A program made the translations under genes and the position numbers. Positions 46,004-57,246 of a stretch of DNA of 64,000 nt are shown here, piece by piece; positions within the stretch are counted from its first letter, which is position 1; every line of letters begins with the position of its first letter. The notes below the pieces were generated by a model. That model made no database searches and had not been told where the DNA came from. It worked only from the letters and a program-made list of their open reading frames with translations. Source of the stretch: Methanofollis tationis (GTDB lineage Archaea > Halobacteriota > Methanomicrobia > Methanomicrobiales > Methanofollaceae); assembly GCF_013377755.1 (NCBI RefSeq), contig NZ_JABXWR010000001.1, positions 383,104 to 447,103 on the forward strand. The letters are read 5' to 3'.

Positions 46004-46185
46004 GGACGATAGAAGAGTGCGGGTTCTGCCGGGATAAATACTTGCGGCCTTCCGGGATCACGGCACGCGGAAAGGTGTGGGAAGGCGATGCCGCCCCAAT
46101 ATCAATTTTCTTATAGGATGGAAAGCAAATAGCACGTGCATAGGCAAAAAGAGTTTGAAATAGGTTGATTTGCTGGAATACAAAC

Positions 46186-46193
46186 GTTTATGT
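46186..46193 (+). promoter_or_regulatory. Probable TATA box of the eha-fwd operon
   Basis: GTTTATGT lies 48-55 nt before the first eha ATG, preceded by AT-rich sequence from 46100. Transcription from about 46218 would give a 20-25 nt leader that includes the AGGAG site at 46229-46233. The region from 46004 to 46185 shows no gene. Confidence 0.5.
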
Positions 46194-46240
46194 TAGGGAC
46201 AGAGTTAAATGAACCTCATTGAATAACCAGGAGACCGGAG

Positions 46241-46726
46241 ATGCTTGCTGACTATATTCAGATCCCGATCGCGGCCGCCCTCTGCTGGATCCTCTTCGTC
46301 ACCGTCGATATCGTCTTCAGGCTCCCGGAGAAAGGCGGGGTAAAAGGGGCGGCGGCGATCGGTCGGAAGATCCGGGAGGACGGCGGCAGCCTTCCCGGCG
46401 GCACCATGATGGGGAATATCGTCTCCTCCCCTGATGCCTCTGCCGGCACGCTCCTCGCCGCCTGCGGCGTATATGTCGCAGGGCTTCCCGGCGGCCTTGC
46501 GGCAGCCGCTCTCGTCTTTATCGGCAACCGGATCTGCCACGACCCCGGGTATGCCGGGACGACCGGCGCCGTCCTTGCAAGCATTATGGTCACCGGCTTC
46601 GCCGTTCTCGGGTTCGCTCCCGAAAACTTCATCGCAGGGATGGTCATCGCCATCCTGACGATACAGGGGCTCTCTCACCCCTATGCGAGCCGGCTCCTCA
46701 CCCGCATCTGGGGGTGGCGGAGTTGA
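46241..46726 (+). CDS. ehaB: Eha hydrogenase membrane subunit (EhaB-like)
   Basis: 161-aa membrane protein. Three to four hydrophobic stretches flank a Gly-rich loop (PGGTMMGNIVSSPDASAGTLL). AGGAG at 46229-46233 is the best RBS of the operon. First gene of the operon; assignment to EhaB rests on position before the EhaC-EhaG set and on size. No candidate EhaA is seen upstream. Part of the membrane arm that couples ion flow to ferredoxin reduction with H2. Confidence 0.65.
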   Translation: MLADYIQIPIAAALCWILFVTVDIVFRLPEKGGVKGAAAIGRKIREDGGSLPGGTMMGNIVSSPDASAGTLLAACGVYVAGLPGGLAAAALVFIGNRICHDPGYAGTTGAVLASIMVTGFAVLGFAPENFIAGMVIAILTIQGLSHPYASRLLTRIWGWRS

Positions 46727-46965
46727 TCGCCCTGTACGTCTGCGGCCTCATCGCCCTCTTCGCCGCCGTCAGGACGGTGATCGAGCCCCACCCCTACCGG
46801 AAGCTCCCCTACCTCAACGTGATGAACTTCGCCATCGCCGGTCTGATCGTCCTCGTCCTCTCTCACCCCCTTTCCATCCTTGCGGCGGCCGCCTATTTCG
46901 TCGGCTCCACCCTGGAGGCGAACGCGATCGCCTCGGCACGCGCGGCGGTGATGGGCAATGATTGA
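46714..46965 (+). CDS. ehaC: Eha hydrogenase small membrane subunit (EhaC-like)
   Basis: 83 aa from GTG 46714, which overlaps the previous gene by 13 nt. Three TM helices with the conserved cytosolic stretch RTVIEPHPYRKLPYLNVMNF. Order and size match EhaC. The GTG gives the only full-length product containing the first helix. Confidence 0.65.
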   Translation: MAELIALYVCGLIALFAAVRTVIEPHPYRKLPYLNVMNFAIAGLIVLVLSHPLSILAAAAYFVGSTLEANAIASARAAVMGND

Positions 46966-47194
46966 ATTTCTGCAGGTGGTACTCGCCGCCATCGTCATCC
47001 TCGGCACCGCGGCGACGGCGTGGAGCCGCGACCCGTTCAACAAACTGATCTGCCTCGGCGTCCTGATCGGCGGGGTCTTCCCGTTCATCGTCGCCGGCGG
47101 CTATCTCGACGTCGCCGTCGCCGTCGCCCTGATCGCCCCTATGACCACAATATTCGTGCTTGCAATCACCGGGAGGGACGGCGATGGAGTCTGA
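46958..47194 (+). CDS. ehaD: Eha hydrogenase small membrane subunit (EhaD-like)
   Basis: 78-aa protein with three hydrophobic helices around the short charged loop SRDPFNKLICLGVLIGG. MnhC/NuoK-like in size. Start overlaps the preceding stop by 8 nt. Placed as EhaD by order in the cluster. Confidence 0.65.
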   Translation: MIEFLQVVLAAIVILGTAATAWSRDPFNKLICLGVLIGGVFPFIVAGGYLDVAVAVALIAPMTTIFVLAITGRDGDGV

Positions 47195-47420
47195 ACTCAT
47201 CCTCGGACTTCTGGTGCTGATCATCGGAGCGCTCGCCGCGGCGTTCCCGCGGCCAAAGACCTATCTCTCCCGGATCATCAGCCTCGAAATCCCGGCCTGG
47301 GGGCTTTTGCTCATCATGCTCGCCTACAACGAGACACTTGCCCTGCTTACCTTTATTGCCGTCACCGCCATCTCCACCTTTGTCATGGTGCGGGTGGTCG
47401 AGAGGAGGATGGTCCCATGA
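47184..47420 (+). CDS. ehaE: Eha hydrogenase small membrane subunit (EhaE-like)
   Basis: 78-aa protein of three TM helices with RPKTYLSRIISLEIPAWGLLL between the first two, a feature of EhaE-like subunits. ATG 47184 follows GGGAGGGACGG and lies inside the end of the previous gene (11-nt overlap). An upstream open extension is ignored for lack of signals. Confidence 0.65.
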   Translation: MESELILGLLVLIIGALAAAFPRPKTYLSRIISLEIPAWGLLLIMLAYNETLALLTFIAVTAISTFVMVRVVERRMVP

Positions 47421-47869
47421 TCATCAGCAGGATCTCGCGGATCCTTGCCGGCTACGAGAACCTCTCCCTCCTCTATGCGGTGCTCGTCCTGGTCGGCATC
47501 GTGATCGGCCTCGTCTCCATCCCCGGCATCGTCTATCACGGGGACAACCTCTACCCCAAGACGCTCGACCCGTCGAGCGCCCTCGACCCCTACGACCGCG
47601 GCGGCGAACCCTTCGGGAACACGAGCGTTGCCGCACAGTACCCGGAGAACTCTCCCTATCTCGGCTACGTGACGGCGTACCTCACGCCCCTCTCGCAGTT
47701 CCTCGCCGATACCACGTCCCACCTGGGCACGACGATCGTTGCCCATCCCGGCGGGATCATCGACGAGATCCTCTACAACACGCGGGGGCTCGATACCGTC
47801 GTCGAGACGAGCATCCTCTTTGTAGCATTTGCGATCGCCTCGTTCCTCTTCAGGAGGCGTGAAGGATGA
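47417..47869 (+). CDS. ehaF: Eha hydrogenase membrane subunit (EhaF-like)
   Basis: 150 aa. One N-terminal TM helix, a long extracytoplasmic loop rich in Pro/Asp/Tyr (DNLYPKTLDPSSALDPYDRG and PLSQFLADTTSHLGTT), then a C-terminal TM helix ending FRRREG. This topology matches EhaF. ATGA overlap with the upstream stop. Confidence 0.65.
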   Translation: MIISRISRILAGYENLSLLYAVLVLVGIVIGLVSIPGIVYHGDNLYPKTLDPSSALDPYDRGGEPFGNTSVAAQYPENSPYLGYVTAYLTPLSQFLADTTSHLGTTIVAHPGGIIDEILYNTRGLDTVVETSILFVAFAIASFLFRRREG

Positions 47870-48462
47870 GCCCGTACGGGACGGTCCTCGCTGTCGTCCT
47901 GGTCGCCATGGCGATCGCCTTTGTGGCCCTGGTGCGCGAACGCGACGACCTCCACCGCCTGCTCCTCACCGATCTCGCCGAGATCGTCGCCCTGGCGATC
48001 ATCGCCCTCGTCGCCACCGACCTTGCCGAGGCGCTCATCCTCCCGGGCCTGGTCGTCGGAATCTCCGAACTGATGGCGCTGTCCGAGGTCTACCTGGTGA
48101 AAGAAGGGCTCAGGTCAGTGCCCGAACGCCTGATGCACATCGAGGTCATGGACAGCGCCCCGGCGATTCTGGCGGTCGCCCTCGTCATCTACGGTATCGT
48201 GCTCTCGGGCTTCTCCGGGGGCGCCGTCGCCGGGTGCGGTCTCCTCTTCTGGTTCTTCTGCAAGGGCCATGACGAGGCCTTCGAGATCATAGAGACCGCC
48301 TCGGGCTACGCCTGGGCGCTCTGGATCGTCGCCTTCTTCGTCTTCATGATCGCCCCTGCGTACTGGCTCTTTGCGGTGATGCTTGCCGGCGGCGGGATCC
48401 TCCTGAAGGTGATGGCGAAGATGGCCCTGGTCGGGACCATGCGAGGTGGTCGCGATGTTTGA
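47866..48462 (+). CDS. ehaG: Eha hydrogenase membrane subunit (EhaG-like)
   Basis: 198-aa polytopic protein with about six helices; SELMALSEVYLVKEGLRSVP is a conserved cytosolic segment. Start overlaps the previous stop by 4 nt and the end overlaps the next gene by 8 nt. Assigned to EhaG by order and length. Confidence 0.65.
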   Translation: MSPYGTVLAVVLVAMAIAFVALVRERDDLHRLLLTDLAEIVALAIIALVATDLAEALILPGLVVGISELMALSEVYLVKEGLRSVPERLMHIEVMDSAPAILAVALVIYGIVLSGFSGGAVAGCGLLFWFFCKGHDEAFEIIETASGYAWALWIVAFFVFMIAPAYWLFAVMLAGGGILLKVMAKMALVGTMRGGRDV

Positions 48463-49111
48463 TCTCCCGATCGAGGGGGCGCAGTTGATGGCGGTCGAGT
48501 TCGGCGATATCGTCGCCTACTTCAGCGTCTATACAGGCACGCTCTTCGCCTTCGCCCTGCTCTTCACGGTGCTCGCGATAGTCAGCCTCCCTGAACGGCC
48601 GATGGACATCGTCTTTGGCGGCGACGCCTATTACACCAAGGAGATCCCGCTCGATCTTCTGCGGTTCCAGCGGTTCATGGCGATCGCCTGCGGGCTCGCC
48701 ACCCTCGGGGCGGTGGTCTCCGGCGACATCTTCAACTTCACCCTCTTTGGCTCGATGATCGGGATCACGAATATCGGGATCGTCGCCGCGGTGAAGAACA
48801 GGCACGTCCTGGAGGCCGCCTACCAGTACGGGATCGTGGCGATGGTCGCCACCGTCCCCCTCTTCGGCGGTGCGGCGATCGTCCTCGCATCGACCGGCAC
48901 CCTCTCCATCTGGGCGCTCGCCGGTGCGGCTGCGGTCCCTCTCCTCGCCAAAATCTTCCTGGTCCTCGGGGTGATGGGGGAAGGGATGGCGCCGTTCTAT
49001 ATCGGAAAAGCCGAGATCACCCGTGCGCCGGGCGCGCCCTACGTGCTGATGATCCATGTGAGTTCTCTTCTCCTCTTCCTCCGGGTGGTGGAGATCGTCC
49101 TGACGGTGTGA
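48455..49111 (+). CDS. ehaH: Eha hydrogenase membrane subunit (EhaH-like)
   Basis: 218-aa membrane protein, five to six helices, with buried charged residues (LLAKIFLVLGVMGEGMAPFY) such as occur in ion-translocating antiporter-like subunits. EhaH is the subunit of Eha compared to such transporters. ATG 48455 is preceded by GAGGTGG. A three-codon extension to 48446 has no RBS. Confidence 0.65.
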   Translation: MFDLPIEGAQLMAVEFGDIVAYFSVYTGTLFAFALLFTVLAIVSLPERPMDIVFGGDAYYTKEIPLDLLRFQRFMAIACGLATLGAVVSGDIFNFTLFGSMIGITNIGIVAAVKNRHVLEAAYQYGIVAMVATVPLFGGAAIVLASTGTLSIWALAGAAAVPLLAKIFLVLGVMGEGMAPFYIGKAEITRAPGAPYVLMIHVSSLLLFLRVVEIVLTV

Positions 49112-49320
49112 TGACAATGAAAAAACAGACAGCAGGTGCGGTGACGGTGGCGGCGGGCGTGGTCTGCGTCGCCGCCTCGGCGGCGTGGCGGCTCGGCCTC
49201 CTGGAGACATGGCTTGCGATCGTGCTGAACGTCGTCGCCTTTCCGTTCTTCCTTGTCGCCCTTGGCCTGTGGTGGAATGCAGCAGAAAAAGAGGGGGACA
49301 CCCCATTCATAGGGTACTGA
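49111..49320 (+). CDS. ehaI: Eha hydrogenase small membrane subunit (EhaI-like)
   Basis: 69-aa protein, two TM helices (about 9-26 and 32-52) and a short acidic tail EKEGDTPFIGY. Its ATG shares a base with the TGA of the previous gene. Position suggests EhaI; sequence alone is not decisive. Confidence 0.55.
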   Translation: MTMKKQTAGAVTVAAGVVCVAASAAWRLGLLETWLAIVLNVVAFPFFLVALGLWWNAAEKEGDTPFIGY

Positions 49321-49321
49321 C

Positions 49322-50164
49322 ATGATCGAATATCTCATCGTCGCAGTCTTTGCCGGCCTTCTCCTCCACGGGATCCACCGGAAGGCGATCGCACGGATAC
49401 AGGGCCGGCCCGGCCCCCCGATCTGGCAGGAGATCCTCCATGTCCTGAAGTTCTCCTTCAAGGAGACCTGGATCCCATGGACGGCGAGCCGAACGCTCTT
49501 CGTCGCCGTCGTGTTCATCGCCATCGGTATCTGGAGCACCGCTCTCGTGGTGCTCCTCACCGGGCAGAGCCTTCTCCTCCTCTTCGGCGTCTATATGCTC
49601 CACAAGATCGTGGAGCACGGTCTCGGCCTCTCTTCGGGCTCGCCGTACGGGAAGTTCGGCGCCATCAGGTCGGTGATGTCGGCGGCCTCTGAGATCCCGC
49701 TCTTCGCCACGATCGCCGCCATCTACCTGGTCACCAACTCCCTGATGATCTCCGACATCCTTGCCTGGCAGGTGGCGAACGGGCCGCTCCTGCTCGCGGT
49801 CCCGCCGGCGGCGGCAGCCCTCTACATCGTGGTCCTTGCAAAGATGCACTACAGCCCCTTCGCCGTCATCGAGAGCAAGGAGATCGTGAGCGGGAATATG
49901 ACCGAGCACTTCGGCGTCTGGCGGGCCGGTCTCGACGTCGCCTTCGGGCTCAAGACCTTTGTCCTCCTCTACGCCTTCATCCTGCTCTTCATCGGGCCGA
50001 TCTCCCTCCTTGCGATGGCGGTGGTGATGCTCCTCCTGCTCCTCTCCCTCTCGCTCATCTGCGCCATCACCCCGATGCTCTCCCCCTTCGACACCGTCAC
50101 CATCCAGATCGGGGCGGCCGGGCTGATCGTGGCATACGTCCTCCTGATGGGGGTGTTCCTGTGA
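49322..50164 (+). CDS. ehaJ: Eha hydrogenase membrane subunit (EhaJ, NuoH/HyfC-like)
   Basis: 280-aa polytopic protein, about eight helices. The N-terminal IARIQGRPGPPIWQEILHVL and the conserved ESKEIVSGNMTEH near residue 180 (Glu-rich loop facing the quinone/ion channel in NuoH) mark it as the NuoH/HycD-type subunit of energy-converting hydrogenases. This is the anchor between the hydrogenase module and the membrane arm. Confidence 0.8.
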   Translation: MIEYLIVAVFAGLLLHGIHRKAIARIQGRPGPPIWQEILHVLKFSFKETWIPWTASRTLFVAVVFIAIGIWSTALVVLLTGQSLLLLFGVYMLHKIVEHGLGLSSGSPYGKFGAIRSVMSAASEIPLFATIAAIYLVTNSLMISDILAWQVANGPLLLAVPPAAAALYIVVLAKMHYSPFAVIESKEIVSGNMTEHFGVWRAGLDVAFGLKTFVLLYAFILLFIGPISLLAMAVVMLLLLLSLSLICAITPMLSPFDTVTIQIGAAGLIVAYVLLMGVFL

Positions 50165-50409
50165 GCATGATACGCAATGCAATCGCCGGCGGCGCAGTCA
50201 TATATGGCGCCATCATGGTTGTCCAGGCGCTGCAGCGCCCGTCGACGGCTGCGGGAGCGATCGCGGCGGCCTTCCTCCTTGCGGCCGCCGGGCTCGTTCT
50301 CTGGTCGACGGACGAGCACCGGCTTAAAACGGTCGAGATGGCGCTCCTCTGGTGCTGTGTCGCCCTGTTTCTGGTCTATGGTCTCCTCGCCTCCGGGGGT
50401 GTGCTATGA
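50161..50409 (+). CDS. Eha hydrogenase small membrane subunit (EhaK/EhaL-like)
   Basis: 82 aa from GTG 50161 (an ATG two codons later is possible), three hydrophobic segments with a charged linker STDEHRLKTVEMAL. Lies between ehaJ and ehaM, where EhaK and EhaL are found in M. thermautotrophicus; only one such gene exists here, so EhaK versus EhaL is not settled. Confidence 0.55.
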   Translation: MSMIRNAIAGGAVIYGAIMVVQALQRPSTAAGAIAAAFLLAAAGLVLWSTDEHRLKTVEMALLWCCVALFLVYGLLASGGVL

Positions 50410-50798
50410 ACGACGGCTATCTCTATGAAAAAGACCTGCGTCCGCTGAAGTACAACATCCTCACCGGGTCCAGACAGGACCGGACGGTCAGGGAGATCGC
50501 CCTGCGCCTGGGTGTGCGGATCCAGAAACTCCGTCTCCATCTTATCGAGCGCCTGGACATGTCAGACATGGAGAACATGCCCGCACGTTTCGAGGCAGGT
50601 GTTGCCGCCATGACCGGTGAGGACCAGGTGGCCGACGCCCTCGGGCGCGACCTGTTTGTCAGGTCCATCGGGGTGTTCACCGCAGAAGAGATGGCGGCCG
50701 CATATGCAAGGGCCCGGACGCTCGCCGAGGGGGGGACGCCGCTTGAAGAAGCAATCGCCGGGGGAAAAGCGGTTCTGAAGGAGATAGTGGCACCATGA
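50406..50798 (+). CDS. ehaM: Eha soluble subunit EhaM (DUF1959)
   Basis: 130-aa hydrophilic protein of the DUF1959 family, known from methanogen Eha clusters. Helical, no membrane segment or Cys motif. [20 protein letters not shown] is the N-terminal part. ATGA overlap with both neighbours. Role inside the complex is unknown. Confidence 0.75.
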
Positions 50799-51253
50799 CA
50801 GGGATGCTCCAGAAACTCAAAAACAACGTCCGATCACGCTCGATCCATGTGGCCTACGTGGACACGGGCTCGTGCAACGGCTGCGATATCGAGGTGCTCG
50901 CCTGCCTCTCGCCGCGCTATGATCTCGAACAGTACGGGATCTACGTCCATAACAACCCCCGGGAAGCCGATGTCCTGCTGGTGATCGGGTGCTGCACCCC
51001 GCAGTGGGAGGACAAACTCAAGAACATCTGGGAAAAGATCCCGGAGCCGAAGGTGGCGATCGCCATCGGGAACTGCCCGATTTCAGGGTGCGTATTCAAC
51101 AGGGAGGGGAGCTATGTCAACCCGCCTGCCTCCAAGCATATCCCGATCGCCGCTTCGGTCCCGGGCTGTCCGCCGCGGCCGACCGAGATCATCAGGGCAA
51201 TCCTCTCGCTTGCACCGATAGTATTCGAGGACTACGAGGAGAAAAAACAATGA
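50795..51253 (+). CDS. ehaN: Eha [NiFe]-hydrogenase small subunit
   Basis: 152-aa NuoB-like protein that holds the proximal [4Fe-4S] cluster. [20 protein letters not shown] gives C27 and C30; further cysteines lie in [20 protein letters not shown] and [12 protein letters not shown]. It passes electrons from the NiFe site to the ferredoxin subunit. Overlaps the ehaM stop and the ehaO start by 4 nt each. Confidence 0.9.
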
Positions 51254-52335
51254 AAAAGACGGTCGATGTGGCGGTGCCGATCGGGCCCGTCCACCCCTGC
51301 TGGAAAGAGCCGATCAGGATCAAGTGCGCGACGAAAGGAGAGCAGGTGCTTTCCGCCGAGGTGGAACTCGGCTACATGAAGAAAGGGATCGAGCGGATCA
51401 TGCGGGGCAGGCCATGGCAGGAGGTGATGTTCCTTGCCGAACGGGTATGCGGGATCTGTTCGGTCGTCCACAACATGGTCTTCATCGAGACGATGGAGGC
51501 GATATCCGGGATCGAACCGGCCGAACGGGCGGCCTTTCTGCGGGTGATCGTCAACGAGCTCGACCGCATGCAGAGCCACCTCATCGCGAACTTCTCGTAC
51601 TGCTATACGATCGAGCACGAGACGCTTGCGATGTACCTCCTCAACGAACGTGAGCACGTGATGGACTTAATCGAGCGGATCACCGGCAACCGGGTGAACA
51701 CCGCCTATATGATCCCGGGCGGCGTCCGCTACGACCTCAGGCCCGAGGACGCCGCTGCCGTTCAGGAGACGCTCGACCTCCTTGAGGCGAACATCACCCG
51801 CTACATGGGTATCTTTGAGGACGGGCCGATGATCGCCCTGCGGAGCCGCGGCGTCGGGGTGCTCACGAAGGAAGACGCCCTGCGGGCGCATGCGGTCGGG
51901 CCGACGGCGCGGGCGAGCGGCATCTCAACCGATCTGAGATCACAACACCCGACCTACCGGAAACTCGGCTTCGAACCGGTCGTCAGGACCGAGTGCGATA
52001 ACTATGCCAGGATCATGGTCAGGTTCGGGGAACTCTTCCAGTCCATCGGCCTGATCAGGAAAGCGCTTGCAATGATGCCCGAAGGCCCGGTCAGGAGCGG
52101 GGGCATCTGCAAGGGGGGCGAGACCCGCTACTCGGGCGAAGCGCCGCGGGGCGAACTCACCTATGTGGTAAAGGCCGATCGCTACGGGAGGGTGGAGGAG
52201 ATCGCCATCCAGACGCCCTCCATCATGAACATCGACGCATGCGCCCACTATATGCTGAAGGGAGCCCTGTCCATCGCCGACGTGACGGCGACCTTCATCA
52301 GTTCGGATCCGTGCGTGGCATGCACTGAGAGGTAA
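51250..52335 (+). CDS. ehaO: Eha [NiFe]-hydrogenase large subunit
   Basis: 361-aa catalytic subunit. The four Ni-Fe ligands are intact: [12 protein letters not shown] (C67, C70) and DPCVACTER at the very C-terminus (C355, C358). As in other group 4 enzymes there is no cleavable tail after the last motif. It activates H2 at the cytosolic side. The ATG at 51250 ([15 protein letters not shown]) matches the family start. Confidence 0.93.
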
Positions 52336-52339
52336 GGAG

Positions 52340-52945
52340 ATGGGTCTGTCGGTTATCTGGTATCTGAAAGAATTTTGCAGGGGGAAATGGATCAAAACCC
52401 TCCTCTTTGCAAAAACCGCCCCGCTCGTCGATCCCCCGTACTTCCGGGGGTATCCGGCGCTGACCGGGAAGGAGTGCACCCGCTGCCTCTCCTGCATGAT
52501 GATCTGCCCGACGCCTGGGGCAATCGAGGTGCTGCGCGAGGGCGAGAAGTGGGTGCCGAAGATCTATCCGGGCCACTGCATCAGGTGCGGGCTCTGTGTC
52601 GAGGCATGCCCCGAGGACGTCCTGGACGCCGGGCGGGTGCTGGAGACGCAACACCGGGACGGCACCTCCATCTCGGTCCGCTACCAGGTGACTGTGAACC
52701 CGGACACCTGCGTGCGCTGCGGCAACTGCGTCGTCGCCTGCCCGGTGAACAAGGAGGTCGACCCGCAGCTCGGCGCCTCCGGGACCTCGGCGAACGACGA
52801 GGTGATCATGCGCATCGAACGGGGCAACCTCTGGGTGCTCCACAACGAGAAGTGCACCGGCTGCAAGACCTGCGAGACCGTCTGCCCGACGGACGCGATC
52901 AAGATCGCCCGCGTCGCCGAAGGGCGGCAGGGGGTCGAGGAATGA
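52340..52945 (+). CDS. Four-cluster polyferredoxin linking Eha and Fwd
   Basis: 201-aa ferredoxin with four CxxCxxCxxxCP motifs: CTRCLSCMMICPTPG, CIRCGLCVEACPED, CVRCGNCVVACPVN and CTGCKTCETVCPTD. The first 35 residues are amphipathic (SVIWYLKEFCRGKWIKTLL), similar to NuoI/EchF. It takes the place of EhaP/EhaQ here and is overlapped by fwdD. It can carry electrons from the hydrogenase directly to formylmethanofuran dehydrogenase; this link is inferred from position. No separate FwdF or FwdG polyferredoxin is found in the operon. Confidence 0.85.
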   Translation: MGLSVIWYLKEFCRGKWIKTLLFAKTAPLVDPPYFRGYPALTGKECTRCLSCMMICPTPGAIEVLREGEKWVPKIYPGHCIRCGLCVEACPEDVLDAGRVLETQHRDGTSISVRYQVTVNPDTCVRCGNCVVACPVNKEVDPQLGASGTSANDEVIMRIERGNLWVLHNEKCTGCKTCETVCPTDAIKIARVAEGRQGVEE

Positions 52946-53340
52946 CGTTTCTCTTCAACACCGGGCGGACGTCGGCGCAGGGTGCGGGACTGGAACACAA
53001 GAGCGGTCCTGAATACCGCGAGGCGACCTCTGTCTGCCGGATGAACCCGGTGGATCTGATGCAACTGGAGATCGAGGCGGGCGAGCGGATCCGCGCTGCA
53101 GGGCCCGGGGGCGTTGTCGTCCTGCAGGTTGCGGCCAGCGACGATATACCGCAGGGAACGGTCTTCGTGCCGCTCGGGCCGTATGCGAATGCGGTCATCG
53201 GCGAGGAGACGCACGGGACCGGGGTGCCAGACTACAAATCGGTCGAGGTCGAGATCGAACCGACCGACGACCCCGTGCCGACGATCGATCAGCTGATGGA
53301 GGCGGTCGGCGGCCTCGCATATCAGGAGGAGAAGAGATGA
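52942..53340 (+). CDS. fwdD: Formylmethanofuran dehydrogenase subunit D
   Basis: 132-aa molybdopterin-dinucleotide-binding (MopB C-terminal) domain protein. TGRTSAQGAGLEHKSGPEY is the family start, and IPQGTVFVPLGPYANAVI plus GTGVPDYKSVEVEIEP form the pterin-binding beta barrel. It completes the active site of FwdB. Overlaps both neighbours by 4 nt. Confidence 0.93.
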   Translation: MTFLFNTGRTSAQGAGLEHKSGPEYREATSVCRMNPVDLMQLEIEAGERIRAAGPGGVVVLQVAASDDIPQGTVFVPLGPYANAVIGEETHGTGVPDYKSVEVEIEPTDDPVPTIDQLMEAVGGLAYQEEKR

Positions 53341-54632
53341 TCCACCGGGATATGATCTGCCCGTTCTGCGGCTGTCTCTGCGACGATCTGGTGATCACGA
53401 CTGAGGGGAACGAGGTGGTGCAGGTGGACAACGCCTGCACGCTCGGCACCCACAAGCTCATGGGGGCCTGGAAGAACCGGCTGAAAAATCCGATCATGCG
53501 GAACGGCGGCGGGTGGCGGGACGCCAGTTACGAGGAGGCGATCGAGTATGCCGCCGGCGTTCTCCTGGACGCCGACCGCCCTCTCCTCTACGGCTGGTCG
53601 AGCACGCAGGGCGAGGCGCAGGGGCTCGGCGTCTCGATGGCCGAACTCCTCGGCGGGGTGATCGATTCCACCACCTCGGTCTGCCACGGCCCCTCGATTC
53701 TCGCCATCCAGGAGGTGGGCCACCCGGGCTGCACCCTCGGGCAGGTGAAGAACCGCGCCGATCTCGTCATCTACTGGGCATGCAACCCGACCGAGGCCCA
53801 CCCGCGGCATATGAGCCGTTACACCACCTACGCCGACGGGTTCTTCCTCGAAAACGCTTTCAGAGACAGAAAACTCATTGTCGTCGACGTCAGGAAGAGC
53901 GAGACCACCTCGATCGCCGACGAGTTCGTGAAGGTGAAACCGGGAGGGGACTATGCGGTCTTCGCCGCCCTGCGGGCGATCGTCAGGGGCCGGGCCGACG
54001 TCGTCCCTGACACGGTCGCGGGCGTCACAAAAGAGCAGCTCGTGCGTATCGGGGAGATGTGCAAAGAGGCAAAGTTCGGTGCGCTCTTCTTCGGCGTCGG
54101 GCTCACGATGGCGCCGGGGAAATACAAAAACATCAGGAACGCCATCGAACTCGTGGACGAACTCAACCGCTACACGAAGTGGACCTTGACGCCCCTGCGG
54201 GGCCACTACAACGTCCACGGCTCCAACGAAGTCTTCACCTGGATGACCGGCTACCCGTACGCCGTGGACTTCTCCAGGCAGATCGCCTTCTACAATCCAG
54301 GAGAGACGACGGCCGTCGATATCCTGGCCAGAAAGGAGTGCGACGCCTGCCTGATCGTGGCGTCCGACCCGGGCGCCCACTTCCCGAAGGCCTGTCTGGA
54401 GCACCTTGCTAAAATCCCGACCGTGCTGATCGACCCGATGCACACCGTGACAACGCCCCTCTGCCGGTGCCAGATCCCGACCGCGGTCAACGGGATCGAT
54501 GCGGGGGGCACCGCCTACCGGATGGACGGCGTGCCCATTCACGTAAAGAAGTTCATGGACCTCGGCTACCCGAGCGACACCGAGGTCATCGGCCGGATCT
54601 TCGAGCAGATAAAGGAGGTAAAACACCCATGA
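53337..54632 (+). CDS. fwdB: Formylmethanofuran dehydrogenase subunit B
   Basis: 431-aa tungsten/molybdenum pterin subunit that reduces CO2 to formate. N-terminal cluster ligands MICPFCGCLCDDL with C34 in DNACTLG. The metal ligand is Cys116 in TTSVCHGPSIL, not selenocysteine. HPRHMSRYTTYADGF and KPGGDYAVFAAL match the family. The form (W or Mo) cannot be read from the sequence. Translationally coupled on both sides. Confidence 0.95.
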   Translation: MIHRDMICPFCGCLCDDLVITTEGNEVVQVDNACTLGTHKLMGAWKNRLKNPIMRNGGGWRDASYEEAIEYAAGVLLDADRPLLYGWSSTQGEAQGLGVSMAELLGGVIDSTTSVCHGPSILAIQEVGHPGCTLGQVKNRADLVIYWACNPTEAHPRHMSRYTTYADGFFLENAFRDRKLIVVDVRKSETTSIADEFVKVKPGGDYAVFAALRAIVRGRADVVPDTVAGVTKEQLVRIGEMCKEAKFGALFFGVGLTMAPGKYKNIRNAIELVDELNRYTKWTLTPLRGHYNVHGSNEVFTWMTGYPYAVDFSRQIAFYNPGETTAVDILARKECDACLIVASDPGAHFPKACLEHLAKIPTVLIDPMHTVTTPLCRCQIPTAVNGIDAGGTAYRMDGVPIHVKKFMDLGYPSDTEVIGRIFEQIKEVKHP

Positions 54633-56329
54633 GCGACCTTTTGATCAAAAACGCTTTCGTCATCGACCCGATCAACCGGATCAACGGCGAAATCATGGAC
54701 ATCGCCGTCCGGGACGGGCGGATCGTCGAGGACGTCGGGCAGGGGGCCGAGGTGATCGATGCTGCAGGCTGTCTCACCCTCCCCGGAGGGATCGACTCCC
54801 ACACCCATATATGCGGCACCAAGGTGAATTTCGGGCGTTATATGAGCCCTGAGGACATGCGGGCCGGCAGGGAGGCGCGCCGGGGCGTGAAGCATTCCAT
54901 CTCAGGCTACTCGGTGCCGACGACCTATGCAAACTCCTACCGCTACGCCATCATGGGCTACACCACCCTGCTTGAAGGGGCGATGGCGCCCCTCGAGGCC
55001 AGGCACACCCACGAGGAGTTCTCGGCCACGCCCCTGCAGGACGTGATGGCGAACACCCTCTTCGACGGGAACTGGGGAGTGATGGAGGCGATCCGTGACG
55101 GCGACCTCGAGCGTGCGGCAGCCATCGTGGGGTGGACGCTCTCGGCGGTAAAGGGGTTCGGGATCAAACTCACCAACCCCGGCGGCACCGAGGCATGGGG
55201 CTATGGGAAGGACGTGACCTGCATCAGGGACAAAGTCCCCTACTTCGAGGTCACCCCGGCCGAGATCATCGAGACGATGATCCGTTCCTGCGAGCTCCTG
55301 CGCCTCCCGCACTCGGTCCACCTCCACTGCAACAACCTGGGCAAACCAGGCAACTATGCCTGCACCATCGAGACGCTCAATCTCGTCCCTGACCTCAACG
55401 AGAAAAGGCAGACCCTCTATGCCACCCATGTCCAGTTCCACAGCTATGGCGGGTCGGACTGGAAGACCTTCTGCTCGAAGGCCGAACCGGTGGCAGATAC
55501 GGTGAACAACCGCCCCCAGATCGTCATCGACATGGGGCAGGTGATGTTCGGGAAGACGACGACGATGACCGCCGACGGCCCGATGGAGTTCAATCTCTAT
55601 CGTCTTCACCATGACAAGTGGAGCAACCACGATGTGGAGCTCGAGACCGGGTCAGGGATCATCCCGGTGCTCTACCGGCGCAAGAACCTGGTCAACTCGA
55701 TCATGTGGGCGATCGGGCTCGAACTTGCCCTGCTGGTCAAGAACCCCTGGCAGTGCATGCTCACGACCGACAACCCGAACGGGGCGCCGTTCGTGAAGTA
55801 CCCTGAGATCATCGCCCTTCTGATGAGCAAAAAATACCGGGACGCCGAGTTTGCGACGGTCCATCCAGATACGGGATCGAAGGTCGTCCTCCCGGCCCTC
55901 GAGCGCGAGCTGGACTGGAACGAGATCGCCGTGATGACGCGCGCCGGGCAGGCAAAAGCTCTCGGCATCACCGGGATCGGGAAAGGGCACCTCGGGATCG
56001 GCGCCGAGGCCGACATCGCCGTCTATCCCCTGAAGGTCGACGATATCGATCCCTCGACCGAGTACCAGCGGGTGATCGACGGGTTTGCACAGACGAAGTG
56101 GACGGTGAAGCGGGGGAGACCGGTGTCACGGGACGGCGAGATCCTGGTCCACGGGGAGAACACGACCATCTGGGTCGATCCGAAGATCAGGCCCGAGCGC
56201 GATATCTCCAGAAACCCGCGGTTTGTCGAGATGTTCAACCACTGGTACTCGGTGAGGATGAGCAACTATCCGGTGCAGGACGAGTACCTGAAGAGGAACC
56301 TGAGGATGGAGACCGAGGCGGCGATATGA
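54629..56329 (+). CDS. fwdA: Formylmethanofuran dehydrogenase subunit A
   Basis: 566-aa amidohydrolase-type subunit that condenses formate with methanofuran. The metal site begins PGGIDSHTHICGTKVNFG (H58, H60); later HSVHLHCNNLGKPGN supplies another His pair, and TTDNPNGAPF the Asp. AAGGAGGT at 54611-54618 and overlap with the fwdB stop fix the start; a 54-codon open extension inside fwdB is ignored. Typical full length. Confidence 0.95.
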   Translation: MSDLLIKNAFVIDPINRINGEIMDIAVRDGRIVEDVGQGAEVIDAAGCLTLPGGIDSHTHICGTKVNFGRYMSPEDMRAGREARRGVKHSISGYSVPTTYANSYRYAIMGYTTLLEGAMAPLEARHTHEEFSATPLQDVMANTLFDGNWGVMEAIRDGDLERAAAIVGWTLSAVKGFGIKLTNPGGTEAWGYGKDVTCIRDKVPYFEVTPAEIIETMIRSCELLRLPHSVHLHCNNLGKPGNYACTIETLNLVPDLNEKRQTLYATHVQFHSYGGSDWKTFCSKAEPVADTVNNRPQIVIDMGQVMFGKTTTMTADGPMEFNLYRLHHDKWSNHDVELETGSGIIPVLYRRKNLVNSIMWAIGLELALLVKNPWQCMLTTDNPNGAPFVKYPEIIALLMSKKYRDAEFATVHPDTGSKVVLPALERELDWNEIAVMTRAGQAKALGITGIGKGHLGIGAEADIAVYPLKVDDIDPSTEYQRVIDGFAQTKWTVKRGRPVSRDGEILVHGENTTIWVDPKIRPERDISRNPRFVEMFNHWYSVRMSNYPVQDEYLKRNLRMETEAAI

Positions 56330-57096
56330 GGATCATATTGACGATGCGCCCGAGAAAAAACCCGTTCATCCCGGTCGAGGCCGAAGGGATCGTCCCGTCT
56401 ATCCTGATGAACGGGGCCGAGATCACTGTCTGGGAAGGAAACCGGGAGCGGCGGCTTGACGAGGTCTTCGAGGTCGCCGTCGAAGGGGAGGCGGCGACGG
56501 TCGAGGAGGTGGAGGTCGTGCTCCGCGGCGACACCTCGCGCCTCAAACGGATCGGGGAGTACATGGACGGCGGAAGGATCACCGTGGAAGGCGATATCGG
56601 GATGCACTGCGGGAACTTCATGAAGGCCGGGACCATCGAGGTGATGGGCAACGCCGCCGGGTGGTTCGCCCGCGAACTCTGCGGCGGGACGGTCGTCTGC
56701 CGCGGCGATGCCGGTCATTACTGCGCCTCAGGATACCGGGGCGAGAAAAAGGGGATGACCGGGGGCAGGGTCGAGGTCTTCGGGAACACCGGCGACTTTG
56801 CAGCCGAGCACCTTGCCGGCGGCGAGGTGGTCATCCACGGAAACTGCGGCGATATGCCCGGGGTCGAGATGCACGGCGGCACCCTCTCCATCGGCGGGGA
56901 CTGTACCCGTCCCTGCGGGAACATGACCGGGGGAACCTGCACCGTTCTCGGGTGCGCCTATGGGATGATCCCGACGTTCCAGGCAAAAGGCGAGACAAAC
57001 GGCCCGGACGGGAAAAACATCAGTGCATTTACCGGAGATATTGCAAACAGAGGAAAGGGAAGCCTTTTAGTCAGGCGCTATCAATACCTGAAATAG
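56326..57096 (+). CDS. fwdC: Formylmethanofuran dehydrogenase subunit C
   Basis: 256-aa protein with a GltB C-terminal-like right-handed beta helix. Repeated G-xx-G-x-I/V-x-V turns are seen: MDGGRITVEGDIGMHCGNFM, ELCGGTVVCRGDAGHYC, GGRVEVFGNTGDFAAEHLAG and GDCTRPCGNMTGGTCTV. It scaffolds FwdA and FwdB. Its ATG overlaps the fwdA stop; it is followed without gap by a small zinc-ribbon gene. Confidence 0.95.
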   Translation: MRIILTMRPRKNPFIPVEAEGIVPSILMNGAEITVWEGNRERRLDEVFEVAVEGEAATVEEVEVVLRGDTSRLKRIGEYMDGGRITVEGDIGMHCGNFMKAGTIEVMGNAAGWFARELCGGTVVCRGDAGHYCASGYRGEKKGMTGGRVEVFGNTGDFAAEHLAGGEVVIHGNCGDMPGVEMHGGTLSIGGDCTRPCGNMTGGTCTVLGCAYGMIPTFQAKGETNGPDGKNISAFTGDIANRGKGSLLVRRYQYLK

Positions 57097-57246
57097 ATGA
57101 TCAGGCATGAGTGCGGCTACGAAGAGCCGGCCTACTGTAAAAAATGCGGCAGACCCCTTGAGTATACCGAACGCCGCGGCATTTACTGCCCCAACTGCGG
57201 GCATCGGGTCACGATCCTCTGCCCGCAATGCGGCAAGCGCTGGTAG
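57097..57246 (+). CDS. Zinc-ribbon microprotein at the end of the eha-fwd operon
   Basis: 49-aa protein whose ATG directly follows the fwdC TAG. It has seven cysteines, three in CxxC pairs: EC6G, YC14KKC17G, YC31PNC34GH and LC42PQC45GKRW. This looks like a double zinc ribbon or rubredoxin-like knuckle. No function is known. The reading frame, Cys spacing and exact junction argue that it is real and made with Fwd. A role as metal or redox accessory of Fwd is inference. Confidence 0.75.
   Translation: MIRHECGYEEPAYCKKCGRPLEYTERRGIYCPNCGHRVTILCPQCGKRW

What the first reader, a model, noticed from the sequence alone, without database searches (positions are those of the whole stretch)
46241..57246. 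Single 11-kb eha-ferredoxin-fwdDBAC operon
Thirteen Eha-type genes, a four-cluster ferredoxin, fwdDBAC and a zinc-ribbon gene run on one strand with nearly every stop overlapping the next start (mostly ATGA). Eha normally makes reduced ferredoxin and Fwd consumes it in the first step of CO2 reduction. Fusing both in one operon, with one polyferredoxin between them and no FwdF/FwdG, suggests a dedicated electron path or a physical supercomplex. EhaA, one of EhaK/EhaL, EhaP/Q and EhaR-T are not visible, so the complex may be a reduced form.
Basis: partly seen in the sequence, partly recalled or inferred. Interest (0 to 1): 0.75.

Follow-up and report, generated by a model that had tools for sequence, protein, structure and literature searches.

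The report
Hydrogenase wired to CO2-capturing enzyme
In this methanogen a membrane hydrogenase and the enzyme that makes the first catch of CO2 are encoded as one unit, and the protein between them looks like a hydrogenase ferredoxin subunit fused to the CO2 enzyme's own electron-entry subunit, which suggests the two machines are joined by a built-in wire.

Summary
In detail: 46241-57246 (+) is ehaB-J, one ehaK/L, ehaM-O, a four-[4Fe-4S] protein, fwdD-B-A-C and a Zn-ribbon gene, tightly overlapping. It is not peculiar to this strain and the adjacency is published (Anderson 2009; Gilmore 2017). Of 82 ehaH loci fetched from the order, ehaO is followed by the same four-cluster gene in essentially all, and by fwd in about 70.

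What I could not find published:
(1) The "ferredoxin" is a fusion. Residues ~20-100 resemble the NuoI/MbhN/EchF hydrogenase subunit; residues 112-193 resemble FwdG (VIA Z 11.5 to 5t5i). An out-of-order lineage has only the N-terminal half after ehaO.
(2) So "no FwdF/FwdG" is half wrong: FwdG is present, fused; FwdF is absent.
(3) The genome's other Fwd lies in fwdGF-hdrCBA-mvhD-fwdDBAC-mcr. FwdA and FwdB fall into two deep clades: Eha-associated and Hdr-associated.
(4) Eleven near-complete genomes without Eha also lack the Eha-clade FwdA.
(5) EhaA is absent genome-wide; EhaM is present, contrary to the 2009 report.

Best reading: an ion-gradient-driven H2-to-CO2 module, with the fusion protein as intramolecular wire. 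Dedicated pairing is well supported; a physical supercomplex is inferred and untested.

The parts
46004..46240 (+). divergent intergenic region, the only apparent place for a promoter of the unit
   Evidence: no other gap above 4 bases inside the unit; next upstream gene is on - strand
46241..46726 (+). ehaB (161 aa membrane protein)
   Evidence: position and order-wide conservation (67% mean column identity); no Pfam family
46714..46965 (+). ehaC
   Evidence: PF09882 1.5e-27
46958..47194 (+). ehaD
   Evidence: PF09881 1.8e-21
47184..47420 (+). ehaE
   Evidence: PF09880 9.6e-28
47417..47869 (+). ehaF
   Evidence: PF09879 2e-57
47866..48462 (+). ehaG
   Evidence: PF09878 1.3e-72
48455..49111 (+). 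ehaH (NuoN-related)
   Evidence: PF10125 3.3e-96
49108..49320 (+). ehaI-position small membrane protein
   Evidence: position and conservation in the order
49322..50164 (+). ehaJ (NuoH-like)
   Evidence: PF00146 2.7e-29
50161..50409 (+). single small membrane protein at the ehaK/ehaL position
   Evidence: conserved 80-86 aa, ATGA-coupled to ehaJ in 71/71 loci
50406..50798 (+). ehaM
   Evidence: DUF1959 matched by 28/29 orthologues, best 1.9e-12
50795..51253 (+). ehaN, hydrogenase small subunit
   Evidence: PF01058 2.5e-27
51250..52335 (+). ehaO, [NiFe] large subunit with both CxxC motifs
   Evidence: PF00346 7.1e-53, PF00374 2.1e-11; sequence
52340..52945 (+). four-[4Fe-4S] linker: NuoI/MbhN-like domain (residues ~1-108) fused to FwdG-like domain (residues 112-193)
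52942..53340 (+). fwdD, Eha clade
   Evidence: NF042908 2e-30 (below its exception cut-off), PF01568 3.6e-13
53337..54632 (+). fwdB, Eha clade
   Evidence: TIGR03129 597 bits; tree
54629..56329 (+). fwdA, Eha clade
   Evidence: TIGR03121 786 bits; tree
56326..57096 (+). fwdC
   Evidence: TIGR03122 231 bits
57097..57246 (+). 49-aa zinc-ribbon protein
   Evidence: three CxxC-type pairs; follows fwdC in 40 loci and stays behind fd where fwd has left

Best explanation
[quoted passage not shown] Inward ion flow through the Eha membrane arm pays for the uphill potential. The linker is thus both the terminal subunit of Eha and the electron-entry subunit of this Fwd. The cell's second Fwd, with separate FwdG and FwdF, is fed by electron bifurcation at HdrABC-MvhD. 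Shown here: gene content, conserved coupling, domain identities by sequence and predicted structure, separation of the two Fwd lineages, joint absence. Inferred: electron route, physical docking, ion coupling, and an anaplerotic or low-heterodisulfide role.
For: Order-wide linkage and ATGA coupling at fd->fwdD in 56/60 loci. The C-terminal half of the linker matches FwdG: phmmer 9sfi_U 2e-18, 5t5i_G 1.3e-12, 7bkb_L 1.4e-9; the N-terminal half matches MbhN 6cfw_N 5e-7 and MbsN 6u8y_N 3e-8. AlphaFold model pLDDT 89; VIA top row is FwdG 5t5i_P, Z 11.5, 79 of 81 residues, next unrelated row 9.6; Foldseek FwdG TMt 0.83, plus NuoI and MbhN. In the own genome only the linker and the FwdG of the other locus pass 1e-12 out of 57 candidates. 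None of 79 Eha-clade fwd operons has a separate fwdG or fwdF nearby. FwdA/FwdB trees split cleanly by partner. 11 near-complete genomes without EhaH have no Eha-clade FwdA. An out-of-order lineage has a 103-aa N-domain-only version behind ehaO. Precedent for swapped Fwd electron modules: FwdF replaced by an F420-reductase in Ca. Ethanoperedens (PMC11493965), whose Fwd (8rja) is the closest solved relative of this FwdA/FwdB.
Against: No biochemistry. In a group of genomes (9 loci) the Eha-clade fwd has left the operon, in several to sit beside the hdr-fwd cluster, so linkage is not obligatory. One outside lineage (G244) has the fused linker with no fwd directly behind it. Joint absence can reflect one deletion of a contiguous operon. 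A FwdG HMM built from the Hdr-linked copies separates the linker (median 37 bits) from FwdF domains (median 33) only weakly. Two-cluster ferredoxin folds are alike, so the N-terminal assignment rests on modest scores.
Confidence: 0.65

Rival explanations
1. Functional pair without physical contact: Eha reduces the linker or soluble ferredoxins, which diffuse to the Eha-clade Fwd. This is the Gilmore 2017 reading (separate ferredoxin pools for two Fwd enzymes).
For: Relocated fwd in 9 loci shows that the pair survives without co-translation; published as a hypothesis for Methanocorpusculum parvum (PMC5563889).
Against: A FwdG domain fused to a hydrogenase-type subunit is not what a free ferredoxin looks like; the Eha-clade Fwd has no separate FwdG nearby.
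Confidence: 0.25
2. Shared transcription only: the genes are co-regulated as methanogenesis genes, and Eha mainly feeds biosynthesis as in class I methanogens.
For: In Methanothermobacter Eha is described as mainly anabolic (PMC3087415); the genome also has an Ech-type operon that could do other jobs.
Against: Two Fwd clades track their partners; the Eha-clade FwdA is absent in all 11 near-complete Eha-less genomes.
Confidence: 0.07
3. The C-terminal domain is a generic 2[4Fe-4S] extension and the likeness to FwdG is only shared ferredoxin fold.
For: FwdF domain pairs score nearly as well with a local HMM; unrelated ferredoxin folds reach Z 8-9.6.
Against: FwdG is the top single-domain match by phmmer, Foldseek and VIA, end to end, including the stretch between the two cluster motifs; of 57 candidates in the genome only FwdG passes besides the linker itself.
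Confidence: 0.12

Closest known systems
eha-fmd gene clusters of Methanocorpusculum labreanum, Methanoculleus marisnigri, Methanospirillum hungatei (Anderson 2009, PMC2686161)
   Same: same adjacency, and the same proposal that Eha supplies this Fwd
   Different: that report gives subunits A and M as absent; here M is found. The passages I read do not describe the linker's domains or the two Fwd clades.
Two Fwd sets of Methanocorpusculum parvum, one with Eha, one with HdrABC/MvhD (Gilmore 2017, PMC5563889)
   Same: same division of labour proposed
   Different: electron transfer by separate ferredoxins was proposed, in one strain; here a fused FwdG domain suggests direct wiring, and the split is shown across the order.
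Eha of Methanothermobacter (EhaA-T) and Methanococcus maripaludis
   Same: ehaB-O core in the same order
   Different: no EhaA, one of K/L missing; no EhaP-T seen in the operon; fwd attached. In M. maripaludis the two operons are not linked (PMC2686161).
Fdh-Hdr-Fmd complex of Methanospirillum hungatei (PDB 7bkb) and Fwd of Methanothermobacter wolfeii (PDB 5t5i)
   Same: FwdABCD core and FwdG as electron entry
   Different: there FwdG is a separate subunit accompanied by FwdF; here it is fused to a hydrogenase-type domain and FwdF is absent.
F420-coupled Fwd of Ca. Ethanoperedens (PDB 8rja, PMC11493965)
   Same: closest solved FwdA and FwdB; FwdF replaced by another electron module
   Different: partner there is an F420 reductase, here a membrane hydrogenase.
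MbhN / EchF / NuoI subunits of group 4 hydrogenases and complex I
   Same: N-terminal half of the linker
   Different: those proteins lack a FwdG domain (the genome's own putative EchF is 134 aa).

Membership tests
Eha energy-converting hydrogenase | [NiFe] large subunit EhaO with two CxxC pairs, and small subunit EhaN | tested here: met
Eha energy-converting hydrogenase | Eha-type membrane subunits C-H and J in order | tested here: met
   DUF2105-2109, PF10125, PF00146
Eha energy-converting hydrogenase | EhaM (DUF1959) | tested here: met
   28 of 29 orthologues
Eha energy-converting hydrogenase | EhaA (PF17367) | tested here: not met
   no match in the whole genome, control positive; I therefore call it an Eha-type, reduced variant rather than a full EhaA-T enzyme
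Eha energy-converting hydrogenase | EhaP-T accessory subunits | not tested
   not visible in the operon; no genome-wide search made
Formylmethanofuran dehydrogenase (Fwd/Fmd) | FwdA, FwdB, FwdC above curated cut-offs, plus FwdD | tested here: met
   (FwdD below its exception cut-off but 2e-30)
Formylmethanofuran dehydrogenase (Fwd/Fmd) | FwdG electron-entry subunit | tested here: met
   as a fused domain, not a separate subunit
Formylmethanofuran dehydrogenase (Fwd/Fmd) | FwdF polyferredoxin | tested here: not met
   no other ferredoxin-type gene near any of 79 Eha-clade operons except one locus with an unidentified short ORF
NuoI/MbhN/EchF subunit | 2[4Fe-4S] domain with N-terminal helices that docks on the small subunit | tested here: inconclusive
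   phmmer 3e-8 to 5e-7, Foldseek NuoI and MbhN; VIA list dominated by the C-domain; docking not testable
Physical Eha-Fwd supercomplex | co-purification | not testable with these tools
   needs experiment

The most novel reading that the evidence does not exclude
Most Methanomicrobiales carry a membrane-bound H2:CO2 reductase in which Eha and Fwd are one enzyme, joined by a fusion of the hydrogenase's last subunit with FwdG, so that low-potential electrons are made from H2 by the ion gradient and used for CO2 fixation without ever appearing as soluble ferredoxin; a second, bifurcation-fed Fwd works in parallel.
Probability: 0.5. Interest if true: 0.75.

Novelty: new variant of a known kind. 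Interest (0 to 1): 0.55.

Why it matters
How methanogens without cytochromes balance bifurcation-driven and ion-gradient-driven CO2 reduction is an open question, and for Methanomicrobiales the role of Eha has rested on gene adjacency. A fused FwdG domain gives a concrete, testable wire between the two enzymes, explains why this Fwd has no FwdG or FwdF of its own, and names a single protein to tag, truncate or solve.

Tried and rejected
A strain-specific fusion: rejected, order-wide. EhaM absent (as reported in 2009): rejected. EhaA hidden elsewhere in the genome: no match. A FwdG HMM from Hdr-linked copies as classifier: weak discrimination, not relied on. Viral copies of the linker: none found. 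Browne 2016 on Methanomicrobiales genomes was not held. VIA rows for the N-terminal half are few because the C-domain fills the list; the N-domain was not modelled alone. Class I EhaP/Q polyferredoxins were not compared with the linker.
Full report
WHAT IS THERE. The window stretch 46241-57246 (+) holds thirteen Eha-type genes (ehaB-J, one of K/L, M, N, O), a 201-aa protein with four CxxCxxCxxxC motifs, fwdD, fwdB, fwdA, fwdC and a 49-aa zinc ribbon. Family searches agree. In the window all junctions overlap or lie within 4 bases; the genes on both sides are on the other strand, so the unit is bounded. The catalytic cysteine pairs of EhaO are present. The window lies in a 2.25-Mb, two-contig genome.

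CORRECTIONS. EhaM is present: 28 of 29 orthologues match DUF1959, although the window copy alone is below the cut-off. EhaA is absent from the whole genome while the control genome scores. EhaP-T are not seen in the operon and were not sought elsewhere.

IT IS ORDER-WIDE AND PARTLY PUBLISHED. EhaH is found over the cut-off in 104 of 120 genomes of the order (a few of these are weak paralogues). I fetched 82 ehaH neighbourhoods. Three layouts appear: eha-linker-fwdDBAC (about 60 loci, with or without the zinc ribbon), eha-linker-fwdAC (11 loci, one genus of family f6, records titled Methanocorpusculum), and eha-linker(-zinc ribbon) without fwd (9 loci, family f2). Junctions are conserved: linker->fwdD is ATGA in 56 of 60, ehaO->linker at most 20 bases in 81 of 82, ehaN->ehaO ATGA in 79 of 82 (the start codon nearest the preceding stop was chosen, which favours overlaps). 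Anderson et al. 2009 already reported eha next to fmd in three genomes and proposed that Eha feeds this Fwd (PMC2686161); Gilmore et al. 2017 found one Eha-linked and one Hdr-linked Fwd in Methanocorpusculum parvum and proposed separate ferredoxins (PMC5563889); Eha flanked by fmd genes is also noted in Methanospirillum (PMC11346949). The headline finding is therefore known.

THE OTHER FWD. The genome's second fwd set lies in fwdG-fwdF-hdrC-hdrB-hdrA-mvhD-fwdD-fwdB-fwdA-fwdC-mcrB (L045), the same layout in most genomes examined. FwdA trees of 135 sequences and FwdB trees of 131 split into two deep clades; every Eha-linked copy is in one, and the Hdr-linked copies are in the other (one FwdB labelled Hdr-near but Eha-clade comes from a relocated operon beside an hdr cluster, and four FwdB-labelled sequences on a very long branch are other molybdopterin enzymes by their low identity). 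Identity to the window FwdA is bimodal, 68-73% within the Eha clade in other genera and 42-47% for the other clade. FwdA from outside the order is closer (up to 53%) than the Hdr-clade paralogue in the same genome (46%), so the two are not a recent duplication. Eleven genomes at least 94% complete without EhaH (G033, G002, G017, G059, G064, G068, G084, G092, G096, G112, G116) have no Eha-clade FwdA. In seven family-f2 genomes where fwd has left the eha operon, an Eha-clade FwdA is retained elsewhere, in several next to the hdr-fwd cluster. Caveat: a single deletion of a contiguous operon also produces joint absence.

THE LINKER. phmmer against PDB gives, for residues 115-191, FwdG subunits end to end (9sfi_U 2e-18; 5t5i_G 1.3e-12; 7bkb_L 1.4e-9) and, for residues 20-96, the NuoI-like subunits of the membrane-bound sulfane reductase and hydrogenase (6u8y_N 3e-8; 6cfw_N 5e-7). 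The AlphaFold model (49 sequences, pLDDT 89.2, pTM 0.65) matches FwdG 5t5i_G with TMt 0.83, and E. coli NuoI and MbhN; VIA puts FwdG first, Z 11.5, rmsd 2.2, over 79 of 81 residues, model 114-193, with unrelated ferredoxin folds at 9.6 and below. A profile of the linker family searched through the whole genome finds only itself and the FwdG of the Hdr locus among 57 candidates at 1e-12; in three Eha-less genomes it finds only a FwdG-like stretch, aligned to positions 109-190. A second line is weaker: an HMM of Hdr-linked FwdG scores linker C-domains (median 37 bits) only a little above FwdF domains (33). None of 79 Eha-clade fwd operons has fwdG or fwdF nearby, the seven relocated ones included. 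Outside the order, one lineage (f19) has behind ehaO a 103-aa protein made of the N-terminal domain alone, and another (G244) has the fused form followed by unrelated genes. The N-terminal domain thus exists as an Eha-linked protein by itself, which suggests that the FwdG domain was added.

HOW IT PROBABLY WORKS. H2 is oxidised at EhaO; electrons pass EhaN, the N-domain, the FwdG domain and FwdB; the ion gradient pays for the potential; CO2 becomes formylmethanofuran on FwdA-D. From established knowledge, Eha replenishes methanogenesis when bifurcation falls short (Lie et al. 2012, as cited). The FwdF module can be replaced by another electron module, as in Ca. Ethanoperedens (PMC11493965), whose Fwd is the nearest solved relative. 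Only the anatomy is shown here; electron route and docking are inferred.

VERDICT. Observation confirmed; adjacency already known; the fused FwdG linker, the order-wide two-clade split and the joint absence appear new as far as the open-access papers I could search show. Subscription papers were not searchable.

Noticed in passing
L072, L073, L083 (same genus) against window 47417-50798: In three genomes of the genus the block ehaF-ehaM is much more divergent (ehaF-J about 63-71% identical) and falls outside the genus in a tree, while ehaB-C, ehaN-O, linker and fwdB/A on both sides are 81-93% identical: an in-operon replacement of the membrane subunits.
   Followed up: partly
L075 (G057 contig C25): In a same-genus MAG the linker is followed by a remnant of fwdC, fwdDBA being absent there; its Eha-clade FwdA (only 73% identical to the window's) lies on another contig. 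Real rearrangement or binning error.
   Followed up: partly
L045 3115-14442 (genome C1 ~871-882 kb): fwdGF-hdrCBA-mvhD-fwdDBAC runs straight into the mcr operon, so the first and last steps of methanogenesis are clustered.
   Followed up: yes
window 57097-57246: The zinc-ribbon gene stays behind the linker where fwd has left the operon (family f2) and is not detected in most loci of families f5 and f6; it seems tied to Eha rather than to Fwd. Function unknown.
   Followed up: partly
genome contig C2 (30,789 bases), L049: The F420-reducing hydrogenase large subunit with neighbouring frh-like genes sits on a 31-kb second contig: plasmid or unplaced piece not determined.
   Followed up: no
L048 7281-12139: The genome has an Ech-type operon whose last gene encodes a plain 134-aa EchF-like protein without a FwdG domain.
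   Followed up: yes
G108 (L185): A 97% complete genome of the genus that mostly lacks Eha (g12) has Eha plus Eha-clade Fwd, and no Hdr-clade FwdA was found: the mirror image of the Eha-less genomes, or a gap in the assembly.
   Followed up: no
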